Source: Halanaerobium saccharolyticum
Lineage (GTDB): Bacteria; Bacillota; Halanaerobiia; Halanaerobiales; Halanaerobiaceae
Direction: 5' to 3'
Assembly: GCF_004362045.1 (NCBI RefSeq)
Contig: NZ_SNWX01000026.1
Location: 1-44,568, forward strand
DNA: 44,568 bases
Part shown: positions 6,828 to 15,593 of the stretch, one piece after another
Layout of the letters: each line of letters opens with the position of its first letter
Numbering within the stretch: the first letter of the stretch is position 1
Translations under genes and position numbers: made by a program
The notes under the pieces: model-generated
The model's input: the letters and a program-made list of their open reading frames with translations, nothing else
Database searches by the model: none
Told to the model about the DNA's origin: nothing

Positions 6828-7217
6828 ATGGATTTAGAAGTGCCAGCAGCTATTATTGAAAAGTATAATATAGAATTATTTATTGTTTTTGGATCCTATG
6901 CTGAAAATGTGAACAAGCCGGAAAGTGACCTGGACCTGGCTTATAAAAGCTCTAAGATTTTGGCAGAAGAAAAGGAGTTAGAGCTTTTAAAAAAATTATC
7001 TCAATTTTATCAGCGTGGTGATCTTGATTTAGTTAATTTAGCCAAAGCTGAACCAGTTTTAAAGGTAGAGGTGGCTAAAAAGGGAAGATTATTATATGGC
7101 AGTGAGAAAAAATTTGAAGAGTTCAGCATTTATGCTGCTGCTATTTATGCTGATACAAAGTTTCTGCGTGATGATCGCAGAAAAACTCTGGAGAAAAAGC
7201 TTGAGGTGAGGCGTTAA
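6828..7217 (+). CDS. mntA: MntA-type nucleotidyltransferase antitoxin
   Basis: Minimal nucleotidyltransferase of the type VII toxin-antitoxin family, 129 residues. The hallmark GSX10DXD motif is intact: Gly22-Ser23, ten residues, then Asp34-Leu35-Asp36 (GSYAENVNKPESDLDL). Characterised homologues transfer AMP to the conserved Tyr of the HepT partner and so silence it. The start codon is preceded by GGGGTGAT. The TAA stop overlaps the hepT ATG by one base (TAATG), which indicates translational coupling. The gene lies just upstream of the Wadjet operon, in keeping with a defence role, but it has its own terminator. Confidence 0.93.
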   Translation: MDLEVPAAIIEKYNIELFIVFGSYAENVNKPESDLDLAYKSSKILAEEKELELLKKLSQFYQRGDLDLVNLAKAEPVLKVEVAKKGRLLYGSEKKFEEFSIYAAAIYADTKFLRDDRRKTLEKKLEVRR

Positions 7218-7624
7218 TGAGCGAAATAATAGTAAATAAACTGATTAAAATGGAAGAATACATTAGTGAATTAGAAGAATTTAAACCTGAAACATATAAG
7301 GAATATAAAAATGATCAGCTTAAGCGGTATGCGATTGAGCGTTTAATTCAGCTAATTATTGATTTAGCTCTGGATATTAATAATGTTTTAATAAAAAAAT
7401 CAGATCACTATCCCGCCCAGGATTATTATTCTTCATTTCTGGAATTAGTTGAACTGGAGATTTTACCAGAAGAATTTGCCAGAGATATTGCCCCCAGTAC
7501 CGGAATTAGAAACCGACTGGTTCATGAATACGAGAAGGTTAATGATAAAGTTGTTTATCAAAATCTTGATAAGTTAGTTAAATATTATCTTGATTATATT
7601 AAATATGTAAATCAGAATATCTAA
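7217..7624 (+). CDS. hepT: HepT-like HEPN ribonuclease toxin (DUF86)
   Basis: HEPN-domain toxin of the MntA/HepT pair, 135 residues, predicted all-helical. The catalytic RX4HXY signature is complete: Arg98, His103, Tyr105 in GIRNRLVHEY. Known HepT proteins are RNases whose Tyr is adenylylated by MntA. An ATG overlapping the mntA stop (TAATG) starts the gene. A hairpin terminator follows eleven bases after the stop codon, so the pair forms a compact, self-contained cassette. Confidence 0.93.
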   Translation: MSEIIVNKLIKMEEYISELEEFKPETYKEYKNDQLKRYAIERLIQLIIDLALDINNVLIKKSDHYPAQDYYSSFLELVELEILPEEFARDIAPSTGIRNRLVHEYEKVNDKVVYQNLDKLVKYYLDYIKYVNQNI

Positions 7625-7748: not shown

Positions 7749-9239
7749 ATGGATAGAGCCAATACAGGTTTACATGAGCGTTTAAAAAAGACAACTGCGA
7801 TTTCACAGCTGGGGCGGGGAATGGATGTGGGAGCTTTAAATGATTATTCCCACCAGATTGCCCTATATCTGCTGCTTAAGGTTTTTAAGCGGGAAATTAA
7901 TAATAACGGTCAGCGGCAGAGACGTGATCTGATTTCAATGACTACAGAAGTGGTTAAAGAGATGAAATTGCCGCTTAATCTGGAAGAAATTGAGAGGCTG
8001 GTGGATGGAGTTCTCTATTCCGGGGATCCAAAACAGCAGTCTTATTTTACTGCCCGGATTTATGATGAAAAGGCCGGGAAAATCAGAGAATTTAAATACC
8101 GCTATTTAATTCCCGACCGCGAAGCCTCTAACTGGCAGGAAGGTGGGAGCACAGTCTATATGCTCTCCGAAACTGCTCAGGAAATTATTTTTATCACCAG
8201 AGAAATTTTAGAGGAATTTGGTTTTGACCTGGAGCAGTTTTATACCCTGCAGCTGATCAAAAATGGCAACTTTACCGAAGCCAAAAGCAGTGTCAGCAAC
8301 CTAATTGCCCGGGTTCGTAATTTAATCAAAAAGGAAAAGGACTGGCGGGAGGATATTCTGCGCAATCCGGGTCTCATATTTTCAGCCTATAAAGAGCGCA
8401 AACGGCGAACGGAAGCCGAGGTTAGAGAACAGTTTAAAGATGAAAAAAAAGTTTTTAATGATATTTTTGTCTGGCGGGACAGGCTCGATACCTTTGAGAA
8501 TGTAAATCGAAAAGAAGGGGAACTGCTTTTTGAAGAGCTGGAGCGAGCTCGATCCCTACACGATCGGCTGGCCGAGCTTACAATTTCTAATCTTTCCCTT
8601 GAACTGCAGATTCGTAGGGATAACCCTGATATTTTCTGGAAGACTTCCCGCCTCAGTTTCAAAAAAGACTTCTGGCAGAATACCATCTTACAGGAAGGAC
8701 TGCCCCGGATGGAGCTGCTGGAAGAAATGCTCAACCCCCTATTTTCACCGGCCCAGGACTTTATTTTTCCTTTAGCCTGGGCCTGGTCAGAACAGCAGCT
8801 CTACAGTTATTTAGAAGAATCTGAGGCAGAACTGGAAGAATTTGAGGTCGAAGCAGCACCAAAACGGGAATTTGACTGGGAGCTGATTTTAGATCTCTGG
8901 CAGGATGTTTTTAAGGAATTAAAAGAAAAGGGCGAGTTTAATTTAAATCAGCTCAATCAGCTGCCCCTGGCGGAAAAGGAGCGCTGGCTGAGTCAGGAAA
9001 TTAATCTGGAATTATTTATGATGTTTATTATCACCGATATCAAATTAAGACTGGTTGAGGAATACCCGGGACTTGATGAGCGGCTGCTCTTATTTAAACG
9101 TCTGACAGAGAAAAACGAAGATTTCGCAGAGCTGGCAGGTAAAAGAGTTAAAGCAGAACTAGATGCCGGGGCAGAAAAATTAAAGCTTCTGGATCAGTTT
9201 ATCATTTCACCCTATAAAATTTATCTGGAGGAAGAATAA
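7749..9239 (+). CDS. jetA: Wadjet subunit JetA (MksF/MukF-like kleisin)
   Basis: First gene of a four-gene Wadjet plasmid/phage-defence operon. JetA is the kleisin-like (MksF/MukF) subunit that bridges the heads of the JetC SMC dimer. The 496-residue protein has an N-terminal winged-helix-like part (LHERLKKTTAISQLGRG...) and charged helical segments with a likely coiled coil at about 180-290. Assignment rests on length, the order JetA-B-C-D and the certainty of JetC/JetD. It looks more like the DUF5716-type JetA of type II systems than the DUF3375-type of type I, but this is from memory. A TTG at 7740 is also in frame, but the GGAG at 7736-7739 is correctly placed only for ATG 7749. The jetB ATG follows the stop after one base. 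Confidence 0.85.
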   Translation: MDRANTGLHERLKKTTAISQLGRGMDVGALNDYSHQIALYLLLKVFKREINNNGQRQRRDLISMTTEVVKEMKLPLNLEEIERLVDGVLYSGDPKQQSYFTARIYDEKAGKIREFKYRYLIPDREASNWQEGGSTVYMLSETAQEIIFITREILEEFGFDLEQFYTLQLIKNGNFTEAKSSVSNLIARVRNLIKKEKDWREDILRNPGLIFSAYKERKRRTEAEVREQFKDEKKVFNDIFVWRDRLDTFENVNRKEGELLFEELERARSLHDRLAELTISNLSLELQIRRDNPDIFWKTSRLSFKKDFWQNTILQEGLPRMELLEEMLNPLFSPAQDFIFPLAWAWSEQQLYSYLEESEAELEEFEVEAAPKREFDWELILDLWQDVFKELKEKGEFNLNQLNQLPLAEKERWLSQEINLELFMMFIITDIKLRLVEEYPGLDERLLLFKRLTEKNEDFAELAGKRVKAELDAGAEKLKLLDQFIISPYKIYLEEE

Positions 9240-9240
9240 A

Positions 9241-10020
9241 ATGGCTTTTAATCAGGAACAGTTAGAAAAAGGAGCAGCTTTGTTTTTTAAACTACTGGAT
9301 GAGCAGATAATTTCTGCTTCTGAGCCGCTGGCGGAAAAGTATCGCAGTGACAGTGAAGTACATAATATTGTTAATACGATGGCAGCTGAGGCCGGGCTCA
9401 AGGTTTTTGCTACAGCCAGAAATGTACACTTGATCTCAAAGGCCAGGGGTTCAAGTTTTGCCAACTCCTATACTCAGATGAAAAGTAAGTATTCGGGCTT
9501 AAAGCGCAAAAGATATTTTTACCTGGCCAATATCATTATTTCAATTTTTCTGGCAGAGGTAGATAAAGAAAGCCATGTCCGGATTCGCTGGGAAGAGGAA
9601 GGTGTAAGCTACCACCGTCTTTCTGATCTGGTAACCTCGACTCTGGAGAGCTGGCAGCAGCGCAAAAAGGAAGATCACAGTTTTGCCGAGGAATGGTCAA
9701 TTGCAGTTGAAGAGGTGGCAGAGCTCTGGCTGACCGAGTTTAACGAATATAAGTTGAGTCAGGTAGATGAGACTATAGATGTGACCAGGACCAGAGGTAA
9801 CCGCCTTTCCTTTATTAACACCGCCTTAAAACCCTTAACTGAACAGGGATTGATCATTGATCAGAGTGATGAACTTAAAATCATTCCCCGGCCTCAACTT
9901 TATGAACGCCTGGATGAGATTTACCATGATCAGAAAAGATACAACCAATTTATGGATTTAATCAGAGAAACCCGCAGTAAAATTGAGCAGGAGGAAAATA
10001 AAGATGCCCAGACTGAGTAA
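9241..10020 (+). CDS. jetB: Wadjet subunit JetB (MksE/MukE-like KITE protein)
   Basis: Second Wadjet gene, 259 residues, corresponding to the KITE (tandem winged-helix, MksE/MukE) subunit that binds the kleisin. The C-terminal region TRGNRLSFINTALKPLTEQGLI (key features: helix, then a strand-forming LKIIPRPQ) reads as a winged helix. A stretch around residues 90-110 (KRKRYFYLANIIISIFL) is hydrophobic and probably packs inside the domain rather than crossing the membrane. GGAGG precedes the ATG. The 3' end overlaps jetC by 17 bases, so the complex subunits are translationally coupled. Family naming depends mostly on operon position. Confidence 0.82.
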   Translation: MAFNQEQLEKGAALFFKLLDEQIISASEPLAEKYRSDSEVHNIVNTMAAEAGLKVFATARNVHLISKARGSSFANSYTQMKSKYSGLKRKRYFYLANIIISIFLAEVDKESHVRIRWEEEGVSYHRLSDLVTSTLESWQQRKKEDHSFAEEWSIAVEEVAELWLTEFNEYKLSQVDETIDVTRTRGNRLSFINTALKPLTEQGLIIDQSDELKIIPRPQLYERLDEIYHDQKRYNQFMDLIRETRSKIEQEENKDAQTE

Positions 10021-13000
10021 AATAAGGATTACCGGAAATAAATATGATGGATTTCAGAAACAGCACCGCAACTCAATCTTTGATCTGGAGGCTGACCATA
10101 CTCTTTTTACCCTCCAGAATGGGAGTGGGAAAGGAGTTATGCTCCAGCTGATTTCACAGCTGATGCTGCCCGGAACCGCCTGGGGTAAGCGGAATGGTAA
10201 TAAGCTGGAGGGAATGTTTTATGACCGCTACCAGGTTTTTCAGCCCTATAGCTTCCACGTAGTTTTGGAGTGGAGACTTGATGGGAAAGAGGATAAAAAA
10301 CTGCTGGCCGGGATCTGTGTTTCAGCCCACAAGCAGCAGAGCACCTCTGACCAGGAGGGAAAGGTCGGTTTAAAATATTTTCTCTATACTCATCAGTATC
10401 AGGGTCAGAGCCGTTTTGGCCTGGAAAATCTACCTCTGTATACTAAAAGCAGTGATCAGGTTTTAGAATATGATAAACTGGAAGAATTTATCGATCAGAA
10501 CCGCAGTGACTTTATGAAGTTTTCGAAAACAGCTGTTTCCAGCCTCAACTCCGAATACTATCAGTACTTAAGCAGCCACGGAATTTACCGCTCCGAGTGG
10601 GAGATCATGAAAAACATCAACCGCAGTGAGGGTGGGTTGGAAAAATATTTTTCTCAGGCCAGGGATAATAAGGCACTTTTTGAACAGCTGATTATTCCGG
10701 CAGTCAGTGAGAGTATTTCCTATCGGGGAGAATCAGAACAGAATTCTCTGATCAATATTTTTGTTGATAATATCAAGATTGCAGAAAACCTGCCGGAATT
10801 GATTTCCCGGACCGAAGATCTGCAGAATTTAGATCAGATGGTGGAACCGCTGTTAAGTGATGCCGAACAGGGTCTGCGGCTGAAGAAAACGAAGACCATG
10901 ATTAGAGAAAGAGGTAACAATTATCTGCGGGGAATTGCAGACCGCAGGACTTTTCTGGAAAATGAGCTGCGCCGCAGTGAGAGTGATTTACAAGCAGCGG
11001 AAAAGGAAATTAGGGATTTAAATTTTGCCCGGGAAAACTTAAAATATGTGGATAAAGCCAGAGAATTAAAAGAACTAAAGGATCTGCAGCAGCAGCAGCA
11101 AAAACAGCTGGAAGAGCTGAAAGCAAGAGAAGCCGCCTTAGAAGAGAACAGGCTCCAGTATCAGCTCAATCTGGAATATCTCAAATATCAAAAGCTGCAG
11201 CAGGAAGCAGCAGAGACCCAGCAGAAAATTTCTAACTTAAAGGAACGCAGTGAGTTTAAAGAAGTGGAAGCGGAGATTGAAAAAATAAAATCCAGACTGC
11301 AGGAAAATTATCAGCAGCTAAAAAACAAGCTGCAGAGAAGTGCAGCCGATTATTATTCCCATCAGAAGTATTTAAAATCAGAAACTAAAACTCTGATCCA
11401 GCGGGAAAAAGATCTTAAAAATCTGCTCCGGGATCAGGAAAGAATTATTGCTGACTATGAATTTAAAAAAGAAAAATTTGAGACAGAGCAGAAGAGGCTG
11501 GCCCAATTTTTTAATCCTCTGCAGCTGGAGACTCCGCGCTATCTGCTAGAGGAATTGAAAAAGAAAAAAGATGAGCTGGAGAAAAAGCTGGCCGAACTCA
11601 ACGAAAACTTAAAAACGGAAATGGATAAAGAGAAAGAATTAAAAAACAAACAGCAGGAGCTGGAAGTTAAGCTGGCAGAAGCAAAAAAAGATCGAGACAA
11701 CCTGGCTGAGCTTTATCAGCAGCAGAAGCAGGAGGAAGAAAAGGTTTTTTCCCTGTTAGTTAAGAATCTGGAGCTGGATAAATTCGATAATTTTTACAGC
11801 AAAAAATGGCTGCAGCAGCAGAAAAATGAGCTTTTAAAGTTAATTACTGAGAAAAAAGAACGGCTAAAGGAACTAAACAACCAGAGTTTTGAACTCCAGC
11901 TTGATCTAAATTTAAATGACCAGGAGTACTGGGTGGCCAATCATGAGCAGCAGAAATTATATCAGAAAATTAAAGCCTTAAATATTAGAGTTTACTATGG
12001 CAGTGAATTCCTATTTGAACTGAGAGATGACAGGGAAGACCTGTTAAAGAAATATCCGCAGCTGCCCTATGGGCTGGTTGTAGTTTATCAGTCAGACTGG
12101 GAGAAAATAGAGCAGAATCTCTCCTTAGAAGAGCTGATGCATTATGCAGTTCCAATTTTTATCAATCATCAGCTGGATCAGGAAGAAATAAAACTTCCCT
12201 TTAAGGTGCTGGGCGGAACTGAGTTAAAATTTATTGAGGATAATCAGAATTTCAGCAGCTGGTACAGCGGTCTGAAGCAGAAAGAGGCAGAAATAAGCGA
12301 AACGACTTCGATTCTGGAGACAAAGATAAATAAGCTGGAGGAACTCAACTATCAGGCAGCCGGGATGCTGCAGAAAAAGGAAGCTTCAGAGCTGAAAACT
12401 GAGCTGGATAATCTAGAGGCTGAGCTGGAAGAACTGCAGAAGTCGCTGCAGAAAAATGAGCACAGGCTGAGTAATACTGCTCAAAATATTAATTCTATCA
12501 GGGGCAGGATAGAGAAAAAAGAAGAGCAGCTTAAAGAAAATGCTACCAATCTGGAACAGATAGAAGAGTTTATAGAAGCTAAAGAAAATTTAGAGCAGAA
12601 AAAGTCCCGTTATCAGCAGGCAGAAGCGGAAATTGAAAAACTTGAATCCAGGCTGGAGGAAAACTCAGATAAACAGCGTCAGAATGATAAATTACTGCTG
12701 CAGCTGGATAATGATTTTGAAAACTGGCAGCAGAAGCTAAAGAATTTTCAAAATCAGCTGCGAGAAGTTTTAACTGAGGTAGAGACTCTAAAAATAACTG
12801 AGTCAGCCGGCCAGGACTACAAAGCTTCTAAAAATTATCCAGAGTTTATTAAAATAGAGGAAACTGAGGCCTATCAGGATTTTCAAAAGATAACTGACCT
12901 GCAGAAAAAAGAAGCAGAGATAGAAAGTGAATTAAAATATCTGCGCAAAGATCTGCAGAAAACTCTGGCTGCTTTAAATGAATCAGAGGCAGAATTAAAT

Positions 13001-14482
13001 AATCTGGCAGCTGACTGGGAAACAAGAGACTATGATTTTCGCTCCCGGGAAAAACTTAAAATCAGCCTGGAAGAAGTAGAAACCCAGCTGCAGAGTCTGG
13101 AAGCTGAGATTAAAGAATTAGAGGCTGAAATTAATATTAGAACCGGAGAAATTAATAATCAGAGCCGGGTTTTAAGCGAAAAAGCAGCAGAAATCAAGGA
13201 GAGATTTCAGCGCTCGGTTCAGAGCTGGGAAGATGTGGACTTAAAGGTTAAAGAGCTGGAAATCAAAAAAGAGCTGAGTGAAGCCAGAGATTTTCAGTCA
13301 AAATTAAAGGAAATGATCATTAATTATAAAGATAAAATTTCTCATTACAGCAATTTGAGCAATAAACTCGAATACTATCAGCTGGAGGCGGCAAAGGGTG
13401 AGCTTAATGCCGGAATCAAAGAGGAACTTAAGGAAGATCCGGCGGCTGTGGTTGACAGCTGGACTGCTGATTATGAAAATATTCGTTCCAAACTGCAGAA
13501 GTTAAGAGAAAGAACAGAAGAAAATTATTACCGTTTTAAAAATGAAGTGGCAGAGATTGTGGAAAATAAAACTCTGCGCAGTAGAATTAACGAAAAACTG
13601 CTCAACAATTTCCGGATGAATGATTATCAGTATAATTTCGAAATGCTGAGCAGCTTTAAGGAATATTTAAACAATGAACTGAATCGAATTGATGAAGATA
13701 AATCGGAGGCAGAAAGAGCCCGCAGTCAGTGGGCTGAGCGTTCGGCCCTGCATGTGATGCGCCTAATTACTTCGATGCAGGAAATGATCAACAATATGGT
13801 TTATCACAATCAGCGGGGTTATGCTTTTCCTTTAGTCCGTCTGCGCCGCAGCGATCTGCTGCCTGAGACTGAGGAAGAGATTACGGCTGAACTGAAGGAA
13901 TACTTTCTGGAACTGCTGCAGAAGTTTAAAGAACAGGAGATTGAGGTTGAGCGTTTAAGTGATTATCAGCTCAAAGAATACTGTGGAGATGCGGCACTTT
14001 TCTCCCGGGCCCTGCGCGGCCGTTATCCCGTACTCCAGGTTTATAAGATGACAGAGAAAAACGAATTTCTGCATGCTAAACCCGAGGATTATTTCTATTC
14101 TGACTGGGAAGCTGTAATTCAGGGTAAGGGTAATGCACCTGAGGGCAGTGGTGGTCAGTCATTATCAATCAATGCCTTTATGATGATGATGCTTTTAAAT
14201 TACAAAAAGCAGCGTTTTGACCGCACAAATCCCTGGACAGTACTTTTTCTGGATAATCCCTTTGGTAAGGCTTCGGCCGCCCATGTGCTGGATCCGATCT
14301 TTAAAATTGCCGATAAGCTTAATTTTCAGCTGGTAGCCTTTGCGGCTCCGGAGATTATTAAAACAGAAATATCAGAGCGGTTTCCCGTATTCTGGGCTTT
14401 AGAGATTGCCGATGATCAGAAAAACAGAGGTGTAGTTAAAGGACAGGTGGTTTCCGGTGAAAGAAGAAGAAAAATGGAATAA
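10004..14482 (+). CDS. jetC: Wadjet SMC-like ATPase JetC (MksB/MukB-like)
   Basis: SMC-family motor of the Wadjet complex, which extrudes DNA loops and recognises small circular DNA. At 1,492 residues it has the full SMC layout: N-terminal ATPase half, coiled coil (about 290-650), a globular hinge-like centre (about 655-760, starting IRVYYGSEF), a second coiled coil (about 760-1200) and a C-terminal ATPase half. The signature GSGGQS (1381-1386) is present. Two motifs are unusual. Walker A reads NGSGKGV (39-45), with Gly44 where Ser/Thr is expected. Walker B reads LFLDNPFGK (1414-1422), with Asn1418 in place of the usual catalytic Glu. These may be family features of this Wadjet subtype. Start ATG 10004 has AGGAGG upstream; TTG 9983 does not. 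The end overlaps jetD by 26 bases. Confidence 0.93.
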   Translation: MPRLSKIRITGNKYDGFQKQHRNSIFDLEADHTLFTLQNGSGKGVMLQLISQLMLPGTAWGKRNGNKLEGMFYDRYQVFQPYSFHVVLEWRLDGKEDKKLLAGICVSAHKQQSTSDQEGKVGLKYFLYTHQYQGQSRFGLENLPLYTKSSDQVLEYDKLEEFIDQNRSDFMKFSKTAVSSLNSEYYQYLSSHGIYRSEWEIMKNINRSEGGLEKYFSQARDNKALFEQLIIPAVSESISYRGESEQNSLINIFVDNIKIAENLPELISRTEDLQNLDQMVEPLLSDAEQGLRLKKTKTMIRERGNNYLRGIADRRTFLENELRRSESDLQAAEKEIRDLNFARENLKYVDKARELKELKDLQQQQQKQLEELKAREAALEENRLQYQLNLEYLKYQKLQQEAAETQQKISNLKERSEFKEVEAEIEKIKSRLQENYQQLKNKLQRSAADYYSHQKYLKSETKTLIQREKDLKNLLRDQERIIADYEFKKEKFETEQKRLAQFFNPLQLETPRYLLEELKKKKDELEKKLAELNENLKTEMDKEKELKNKQQELEVKLAEAKKDRDNLAELYQQQKQEEEKVFSLLVKNLELDKFDNFYSKKWLQQQKNELLKLITEKKERLKELNNQSFELQLDLNLNDQEYWVANHEQQKLYQKIKALNIRVYYGSEFLFELRDDREDLLKKYPQLPYGLVVVYQSDWEKIEQNLSLEELMHYAVPIFINHQLDQEEIKLPFKVLGGTELKFIEDNQNFSSWYSGLKQKEAEISETTSILETKINKLEELNYQAAGMLQKKEASELKTELDNLEAELEELQKSLQKNEHRLSNTAQNINSIRGRIEKKEEQLKENATNLEQIEEFIEAKENLEQKKSRYQQAEAEIEKLESRLEENSDKQRQNDKLLLQLDNDFENWQQKLKNFQNQLREVLTEVETLKITESAGQDYKASKNYPEFIKIEETEAYQDFQKITDLQKKEAEIESELKYLRKDLQKTLAALNESEAELNNLAADWETRDYDFRSREKLKISLEEVETQLQSLEAEIKELEAEINIRTGEINNQSRVLSEKAAEIKERFQRSVQSWEDVDLKVKELEIKKELSEARDFQSKLKEMIINYKDKISHYSNLSNKLEYYQLEAAKGELNAGIKEELKEDPAAVVDSWTADYENIRSKLQKLRERTEENYYRFKNEVAEIVENKTLRSRINEKLLNNFRMNDYQYNFEMLSSFKEYLNNELNRIDEDKSEAERARSQWAERSALHVMRLITSMQEMINNMVYHNQRGYAFPLVRLRRSDLLPETEEEITAELKEYFLELLQKFKEQEIEVERLSDYQLKEYCGDAALFSRALRGRYPVLQVYKMTEKNEFLHAKPEDYFYSDWEAVIQGKGNAPEGSGGQSLSINAFMMMMLLNYKKQRFDRTNPWTVLFLDNPFGKASAAHVLDPIFKIADKLNFQLVAFAAPEIIKTEISERFPVFWALEIADDQKNRGVVKGQVVSGERRRKME

Positions 14483-15593
14483 GTTGTTTAAAAAATTTAG
14501 AAAAGAAGAGCTGGCCCATAGAAAGCGTTTTGAGCTGGCAGAACTGGAGGATTATTTTAAAACAAAACTGGGTGGAGTTTCTGCCTATCAGGCTGCCGGT
14601 GGTTATCAAAAACTTTATCAGCTGCTGCAGAAGCTGGAAGCCAACCATAAAATTAGTACAATTAAAAGTTCGGATTTCAATCAGCGGCAGCCTCAGCTTA
14701 AAAAGCGCTGGCGTCTGGTAAAAAAAGAGCATCAACACTGGTCAGATAAGGATATTTTGCGGCTTTCCCGGCATCTTAATTTGAACTATTATTTAAAAAG
14801 ACCGGAGCAGCAGACGGAAGAGTTAAAACAGAAACTTTTTAGTCTCTGTAACTTTTTAAACAGTAAAGCTGAGCGGGAGTGGGCCAGCCGGGAAGAGCGT
14901 TCTCTGGAATTATTTGCTGACGAGAAATTTTTGAGCAGAGCAGAAGGAAAAAAACTTTTAAATAATTTAAAGTTAAGTCTGGCTGATTTGAAGGCCCAGC
15001 AGTACAACCATTTATTTGTTTACTGGACTCAGGACCCGACTCAGATCAAAAATATTTTGATCATGGAAAACCATTCGGCCTTTATTGGTGCCAAAAAAGC
15101 CCTGGCAGCAGGATTTAATATTTTCGCTAAAAATTTTGATACAGTAATTTACGGTCAGGGTAAAAAGATTGTCAGCAGTTTTTCCTTTTTAGAAGAACTG
15201 CTGGGAGTTAATTTGCTGGCCAATGAGCGGAAAAAAAGAAATAAAATTGAGGAGCTGAATATTTATTATGCCGGTGATCTGGATCCGGAAGGATTTGCAA
15301 TTTATAAAACATTGAAAGAAAAATATCTGCAGTATGAGATTGAACTGCTGGAAGAATACTATCAGCTGCTTGTAGAAGAGTCCAATAAGTTTTATCCCTC
15401 ACAGAAGCGGCAGAATAAAAATAAAAATGTTTTAGCTGTGGTGGCAGCCGAATTTCAAGCTCAGGATTTTGCTGAACTAGCGGCCAGCCTGGAAAAGGCC
15501 TGGGAGAAAGATTTGAGGCTGCCCCAGGAGCTTATAACTTTTGAAGTGCTGAAAAAATATTTTTTTGAGGAGGCAAAGAGTGGAAGCAGGTAA
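14457..15593 (+). CDS. jetD: Wadjet nuclease subunit JetD (Toprim domain)
   Basis: DNA-cleaving subunit of Wadjet, 378 residues. The N-terminal half is basic and probably binds DNA (DUF3322-like). The C-terminal half is a Toprim-type (DUF2220/DUF2399-like) domain, with the catalytic Glu204 in LIMENHSAF and the DxD-type acidic pair in YYAGDLDPEG (about 271-279). All of the expected acidic residues are present, so the nuclease looks active. The gene starts with GTG at 14457, behind AGGTGG, inside the end of jetC. Its last 14 bases overlap the following flavoprotein gene. Confidence 0.9.
   Translation: MKEEEKWNKLFKKFRKEELAHRKRFELAELEDYFKTKLGGVSAYQAAGGYQKLYQLLQKLEANHKISTIKSSDFNQRQPQLKKRWRLVKKEHQHWSDKDILRLSRHLNLNYYLKRPEQQTEELKQKLFSLCNFLNSKAEREWASREERSLELFADEKFLSRAEGKKLLNNLKLSLADLKAQQYNHLFVYWTQDPTQIKNILIMENHSAFIGAKKALAAGFNIFAKNFDTVIYGQGKKIVSSFSFLEELLGVNLLANERKKRNKIEELNIYYAGDLDPEGFAIYKTLKEKYLQYEIELLEEYYQLLVEESNKFYPSQKRQNKNKNVLAVVAAEFQAQDFAELAASLEKAWEKDLRLPQELITFEVLKKYFFEEAKSGSR

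What the first reader, a model, noticed from the sequence alone, without database searches (positions are those of the whole stretch)
10118..14265. JetC has non-standard Walker A (GKG) and Walker B (DN) residues
Walker A is NGSGKGV with Gly at the Ser/Thr position that binds Mg2+. Walker B is LFLDNPFGK with Asn at the place of the catalytic Glu that activates water. The signature GSGGQS is intact. If not a family trait, this ATPase would bind but hardly hydrolyse ATP. If it is a family trait, this Wadjet branch uses a different hydrolysis mechanism from classic SMC motors.
Basis: partly seen in the sequence, partly recalled or inferred. Interest (0 to 1): 0.62.

Follow-up and report, generated by a model that had tools for sequence, protein, structure and literature searches.

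The report
Type III Wadjet motor lacks catalytic glutamate
The motor protein of one major type of bacterial plasmid-defence machine has lost, across the whole type, the residue that normally lets such motors burn ATP, and it carries a fixed acidic residue at another spot in the ATP pocket that may have taken over the job.

Summary
JetC (10004-14482) has G44 in Walker A (NGSGKGV) and N1418 in Walker B (LFLDNPFG), with an intact SGGQ signature. All four operon genes score as Wadjet type III. The two oddities differ in extent. (1) Asn at the catalytic-Glu position is type III-wide: 64 of 65 type III JetC have D-N (one D-H), against D-E in 24/24 type I and 20/20 type II proteins, in gap-free register. 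(2) Gly at the Mg-binding Ser/Thr is limited to a sub-branch (19/65); other type III proteins keep GKS/T. It is not error or decay: varied synonymous codons encode both residues, and the heads have dN/dS 0-0.02 against the nearest relative. Beyond the finding, type III also lacks the D-loop Asp (mostly Ser) and has a strictly invariant Glu (E209, 65/65) at the probable Q-loop Gln position. I propose a rewired ATP site that still binds ATP and engages heads, with E209 supplying the carboxylate for slow hydrolysis; the main rival is a nearly non-hydrolysing ATP-gated clamp. I found no solved type III structure and no ATPase study of type III. New variant of a known kind.

The parts
7749..9239 (+). 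JetA (kleisin), type III
   Evidence: PADLOC JetA3 PDLC00565, E 3.8e-183
9241..10020 (+). JetB (KITE), type III, DUF6063
   Evidence: PADLOC JetB3 E 4.4e-93; PF19539
10004..14482 (+). JetC (SMC ATPase), type III, 1492 aa
   Evidence: PADLOC JetC3 PDLC00586 E 5.5e-174 over the full length
10118..10138 (+). JetC Walker A NGSGKGV, residues 39-45; G44 at 10133-10135 replaces the Mg-binding Ser/Thr
   Evidence: sequence; aligned to GKS(T) of types I and II
10619..10651 (+). JetC NxxEGGxxxxF motif, residues 206-216; E209 at 10628-10630, probable Q-loop position
   Evidence: N206, E209, F216 invariant 65/65; register from structure comparison, probable only
14144..14161 (+). JetC ABC signature GSGGQS, residues 1381-1386
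   Evidence: sequence; S1382 65/65
14243..14266 (+). JetC Walker B LFLDNPFG, residues 1414-1421; N1418 at 14255-14257 replaces the catalytic Glu
   Evidence: register
14273..14275 (+). JetC S1424 at the D-loop Asp position
   Evidence: register; Ser 54/65, never Asp
14457..15593 (+). JetD (toprim nuclease), type III, with E204 and D274/D276 (MENH, GDLDPEG) kept
   Evidence: PADLOC JetD3 E 1.4e-89; PF09983; motif positions

Best explanation
This is a Wadjet type III JetABCD operon whose SMC subunit, like all type III JetC examined, has a rewired ATP site. Shown: Walker A Lys, Walker B Asp and signature Ser are kept; the catalytic Glu is Asn; the D-loop Asp is usually Ser; a strictly invariant Glu (E209) lies at the probable Q-loop position; in this sub-branch the Walker A Ser/Thr is also Gly. 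Inferred: JetC binds ATP and its heads engage around two identical sites; hydrolysis is slow and uses E209, directly or through Mg2+ and water, in place of the Walker B Glu; in the GKG branch E209 may also stand in for the lost Ser/Thr magnesium ligand. The cycle would load circular DNA and hand it to JetD for cutting, as in type I.
For: D-N 64/65 in type III, D-E in 24/24 type I and 20/20 type II. Heads are the most constrained part of JetC, dN/dS 0-0.02 against L004, against 0.09 in the coil. K43, S1382, D1417 invariant, so ATP binding and engagement look selected. E209 is one of only three acidic positions conserved in at least 97% of the proteins, and the only one of them without a clear counterpart in types I and II. 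The N-lobe model matches MukB and JetC heads at Z 11-13 and pairs residue 217 with Rad50 148, which puts E209 on Q-loop Q140 if ungapped. JetD keeps its acidic residues.
Against: Replacing the Walker B Glu usually stops hydrolysis in ABC/SMC proteins (PMC7756269; PMC6591010). The change arose once, so compensation by E209 has no statistical test. The Q-loop register is uncertain by one or two residues against some templates. The lobes were modelled separately and without ATP.
Confidence: 0.43

Rival explanations
1. ATP-gated clamp: type III JetC binds ATP and engages its heads but hardly hydrolyses. ATP acts as a long-lived switch that traps DNA and licenses JetD, with little or no processive loop extrusion.
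For: Asn for Glu and Ser for Asp in the D-loop are both changes expected to slow hydrolysis, and GKG adds loss of a Mg ligand, while binding and engagement residues are invariant. Vibrio LmuB of Lamassu carries Glu to Gln in Walker B and is thought to hydrolyse little or no ATP (PMC10586767).
Against: Strict invariance of E209 is not explained. Current type I models need ATP-driven loop extrusion to sense circular DNA (PMC12287153).
Confidence: 0.34
2. The catalytic carboxylate is supplied in trans by another subunit, for example JetA.
For: JetA3 is otherwise variable but R11 and E152 are invariant (61/61) and E156 nearly so (59/61).
Against: From my knowledge of MukF and type I structures these kleisin regions are not at the ATP pocket; R11 with E152/E156 may simply be an internal salt bridge. 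Not modelled here.
Confidence: 0.08
3. The site is decaying or contains a sequencing error.
For: None found.
Against: Same residues in independent genomes with varied synonymous codons, gap-free register to types I and II, very low dN/dS in the heads, intact neighbouring genes.
Confidence: 0.01

Closest known systems
Wadjet type I JetC (E. coli 8q72/9qxx/8as8, P. aeruginosa PA14 8dk1-8dk3)
   Same: SMC head fold, Walker A Lys, Walker B Asp, signature, E89 strand, operon partners; structure matches at Z 10-13 for the N-lobe and 6.5-7.7 for the C-lobe
   Different: Type I has GKS/T and D-E and no Glu at the loop aligned with E209
Wadjet type II JetC (Neobacillus vireti 9qe0)
   Same: Closest Walker A surroundings (NGSGKSVTMQS against NGGGKSVLVQL); N-lobe Z 12.4
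   Different: GKS and DEAFAGVD in 20/20
Lamassu LmuB
   Same: Defence SMC/Rad50-like ATPase with a changed Walker B Glu (Gln in Vibrio; PMC10586767)
   Different: Different operon and effectors; two readable LmuB here have D-D in Walker B and a Gln-containing loop motif, not Glu
Degenerate sites of heterodimeric ABC exporters
   Same: Catalytic Glu replaced, ATP thought to be held as glue (PMC7756269)
   Different: Those pair one degenerate with one canonical site; JetC would have two identical non-canonical sites, and the genome shows only one Wadjet JetC match and one JetD match

Membership tests
Wadjet type III (JetABCD) | Four-gene operon jetA, jetB, jetC, jetD | tested here: met
   Contiguous genes 7749-15593, order A-B-C-D
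Wadjet type III (JetABCD) | All four proteins match type III profiles best | tested here: met
   JetA3, JetB3, JetC3, JetD3
Wadjet type III (JetABCD) | JetD toprim acidic residues | tested here: met
   MENH and GDLDPEG motifs
Wadjet type III (JetABCD) | Restricts plasmid establishment | not testable with these tools
   Needs a transformation assay
Canonical hydrolysing SMC/ABC ATPase | Walker A GK[S/T] | tested here: not met
   GKG; 46/65 type III do meet it
Canonical hydrolysing SMC/ABC ATPase | Walker B D-E | tested here: not met
   D-N here and in 64/65 type III
Canonical hydrolysing SMC/ABC ATPase | Signature SGG[QE] | tested here: met
   SGGQ, residues 1382-1385
Canonical hydrolysing SMC/ABC ATPase | D-loop Asp | tested here: not met
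   S1424
Canonical hydrolysing SMC/ABC ATPase | Q-loop Gln | tested here: inconclusive
   Glu (E209) at the probable position; register not proven
Canonical hydrolysing SMC/ABC ATPase | ATP hydrolysis activity | not testable with these tools
   Needs purified protein

The most novel reading that the evidence does not exclude
Type III Wadjet JetC is an SMC motor whose catalytic carboxylate has moved from Walker B to the Q-loop (E209), and the GKG branch has further dropped the usual magnesium ligand: a re-engineered ABC/SMC hydrolysis site in a homodimer.
Probability: 0.35. Interest if true: 0.82.

Novelty: new variant of a known kind. Interest (0 to 1): 0.58.

Why it matters
The Wadjet mechanism work I found rests on types I and II, which have the standard ATP site. 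A whole third type lacks the standard catalytic residue in both of its identical sites, so either SMC hydrolysis can be rewired or plasmid sensing does not need fast hydrolysis. A handful of point mutants can tell the two apart.

Tried and rejected
Sequencing error, decay and shifted motifs were rejected. Loss of the switch His as a special feature of this branch was dropped: type I proteins lack it too, and type III is mixed (His 27/46 in GKS/T, 0/19 in GKG). hhalign of the N-lobe to SMC and SbcC aligned convincingly only around Walker A, so it neither supports nor excludes the Q-loop register. LmuB as an independent test of a Walker B/Q-loop swap gave too few readable sequences. The plasmid collection held only two type III relatives and the phage collection none. 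PDB sequence searches with type III queries found no true relative. Paper searches found no ATPase or Walker-motif study of type III, but the library is open-access only.

Full report
What is there. The window is contig 26 of a genome whose nearest named relative in JetC is Halanaerobium saccharolyticum MSL 17.2 (93% identical). Genes 7749-15593 on the + strand are JetA, JetB, JetC, JetD. PADLOC assigns all four to Wadjet type III, and the JetD_C and DUF6063 Pfam models agree. The genome shows one JetC match and one JetD match, so there is no sign of a second, canonical Wadjet SMC to pair with.

The observation. Reading from the ATG at 10004, residues 39-45 are NGSGKGV (codon 44 GGA) and residues 1414-1421 are LFLDNPFG (codon 1418 AAT); SGGQ is 1382-1385.

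Which family shares it. I collected type III JetC from genomes across Bacillota and from two plasmids. In the first set, 33 of 33 scanned members match PADLOC JetC3 profiles; later members were found with a C-lobe profile of that set and were not typed again. In the alignment of 65 (near-duplicates included; the first 40 have an effective number of about 29 at 62% identity) the counts are: K43 65, S1382 65, D1417 65, N1418 64 with one His (Priestia plasmid, L037), D-loop position Ser 54 and never Asp, position 44 Thr 31, Gly 19, Ser 15. Type I JetC from the same sampling, 24/24 confirmed by PADLOC, have an invariant D-E. Type II JetC have GKS and DEAFAGVD in 20/20. Profile alignment puts LDNPFGKAS on FDEAFNKMD of type I without a gap, and the D-N on the D-E of type II (the type II C-lobe match is weaker, probability 74). 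So the Walker B Asn is a type III trait and the Walker A Gly is a sub-branch trait.

The sub-branch. In the tree of 40 type III heads, 13 GKG rows form one group with 100/100 support and one long-branch row (L098) lies apart; long branches make exact placing unsure. GKG proteins share SGGQ (19/19, against 8/46 in the others) and a two-residue insertion at 1449-1450 (PE in 16/19, absent in all 46 others). They all keep E209, and all but the Priestia protein keep N1418.

Not error, not decay. Codon 44 uses all four Gly codons and codon 1418 both Asn codons across relatives. Against L004, dN/dS is 0.016 for the N-head, 0 for the C-head and 0.094 for the coil. These are pairwise Nei-Gojobori estimates, and dS is saturated for the more distant pairs. 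The ATP-site region is the most constrained part of the protein.

What else changed. Across 65 proteins only three acidic positions reach 97% conservation: E89, E209 and D1417. E89 has a counterpart in types I and II. E209 lies in NxxEGGxxxxF. AlphaFold of the N-lobe (pLDDT 79.6) gives a loop at 208-210 followed by a short helix, another helix and then the coiled coil, the order found around the SMC Q-loop. VIA-align pairs model residues 2-217 with Pf Rad50 1-148 (1f2u), and the Q of YIRQG is Rad50 Q140, so E209 falls on Q140 if the last stretch is ungapped. Other templates differ: 1us8 is off by one residue, and in PA14 JetC (8dk1) the end of the range falls near a Lys-Gln pair, which leaves one or two residues of doubt. 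The register is probable, not proven. In SMC heads the Q-loop Gln contacts Mg2+ and the gamma-phosphate (PMC6591010).

How it most likely works. Shown by sequence: ATP-binding and head-engagement residues kept; catalytic Glu and D-loop Asp replaced; E209 invariant; JetD acidic residues kept. Inferred: ATP binds, heads engage, and hydrolysis is slow with E209 as the acting carboxylate or Mg2+ ligand (0.43). Main rival: an ATP-gated clamp with little hydrolysis (0.34). The loop-extrusion model for Wadjet (PMC12287153) argues against a dead ATPase, but I found no test of it for type III.

Limits. Sampling is almost wholly Bacillota. The lobes were modelled apart, without ATP. The swap appears to have occurred once, so it gives no statistical test of compensation. 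The literature search covers open-access papers only; the 2025 type II structure paper is cited in PMC12647877 but was not read. PMC12647877 notes that Wadjet-III lacks a hinge channel; the passages found do not discuss its ATP site.

Noticed in passing
L092, L093, L243, L249, L250 (genomes G219, G022, G516, G466, G477): Five of six sampled genomes of one genus (g31, family f28) carry GKG-branch type III JetC but give no convincing JetD3 match in the genome; in L092, JetA3 and JetB3 sit beside it. A sixth genome, G587, keeps JetD3 beside its JetC. Possible nuclease-free, chromosome-type reuse of the motor.
   Followed up: partly
window 7749-15593; L089, L090, L094 and others: Gene order: Halanaerobiaceae loci have JetD after JetC, while in most other type III loci where JetD was recognised it lies upstream.
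   Followed up: partly
JetA3 residues R11, E152, E156 (window 7749-9239): JetA3 is variable except for invariant R11 and E152 (61/61) and E156 (59/61); role unknown.
   Followed up: partly
window 6828-7624: A nucleotidyltransferase and HepT-like pair (Polbeta PF18765, HepT-like PF01934), likely a MntA-HepT toxin-antitoxin module, directly upstream of the Wadjet operon.
   Followed up: no
L037 3881-8461: Priestia megaterium megaplasmid pFDU301A encodes a type III JetC with D-H in Walker B and GKG in Walker A, beside JetA3, JetB3 and JetD3: a Wadjet system carried on a plasmid.
   Followed up: partly
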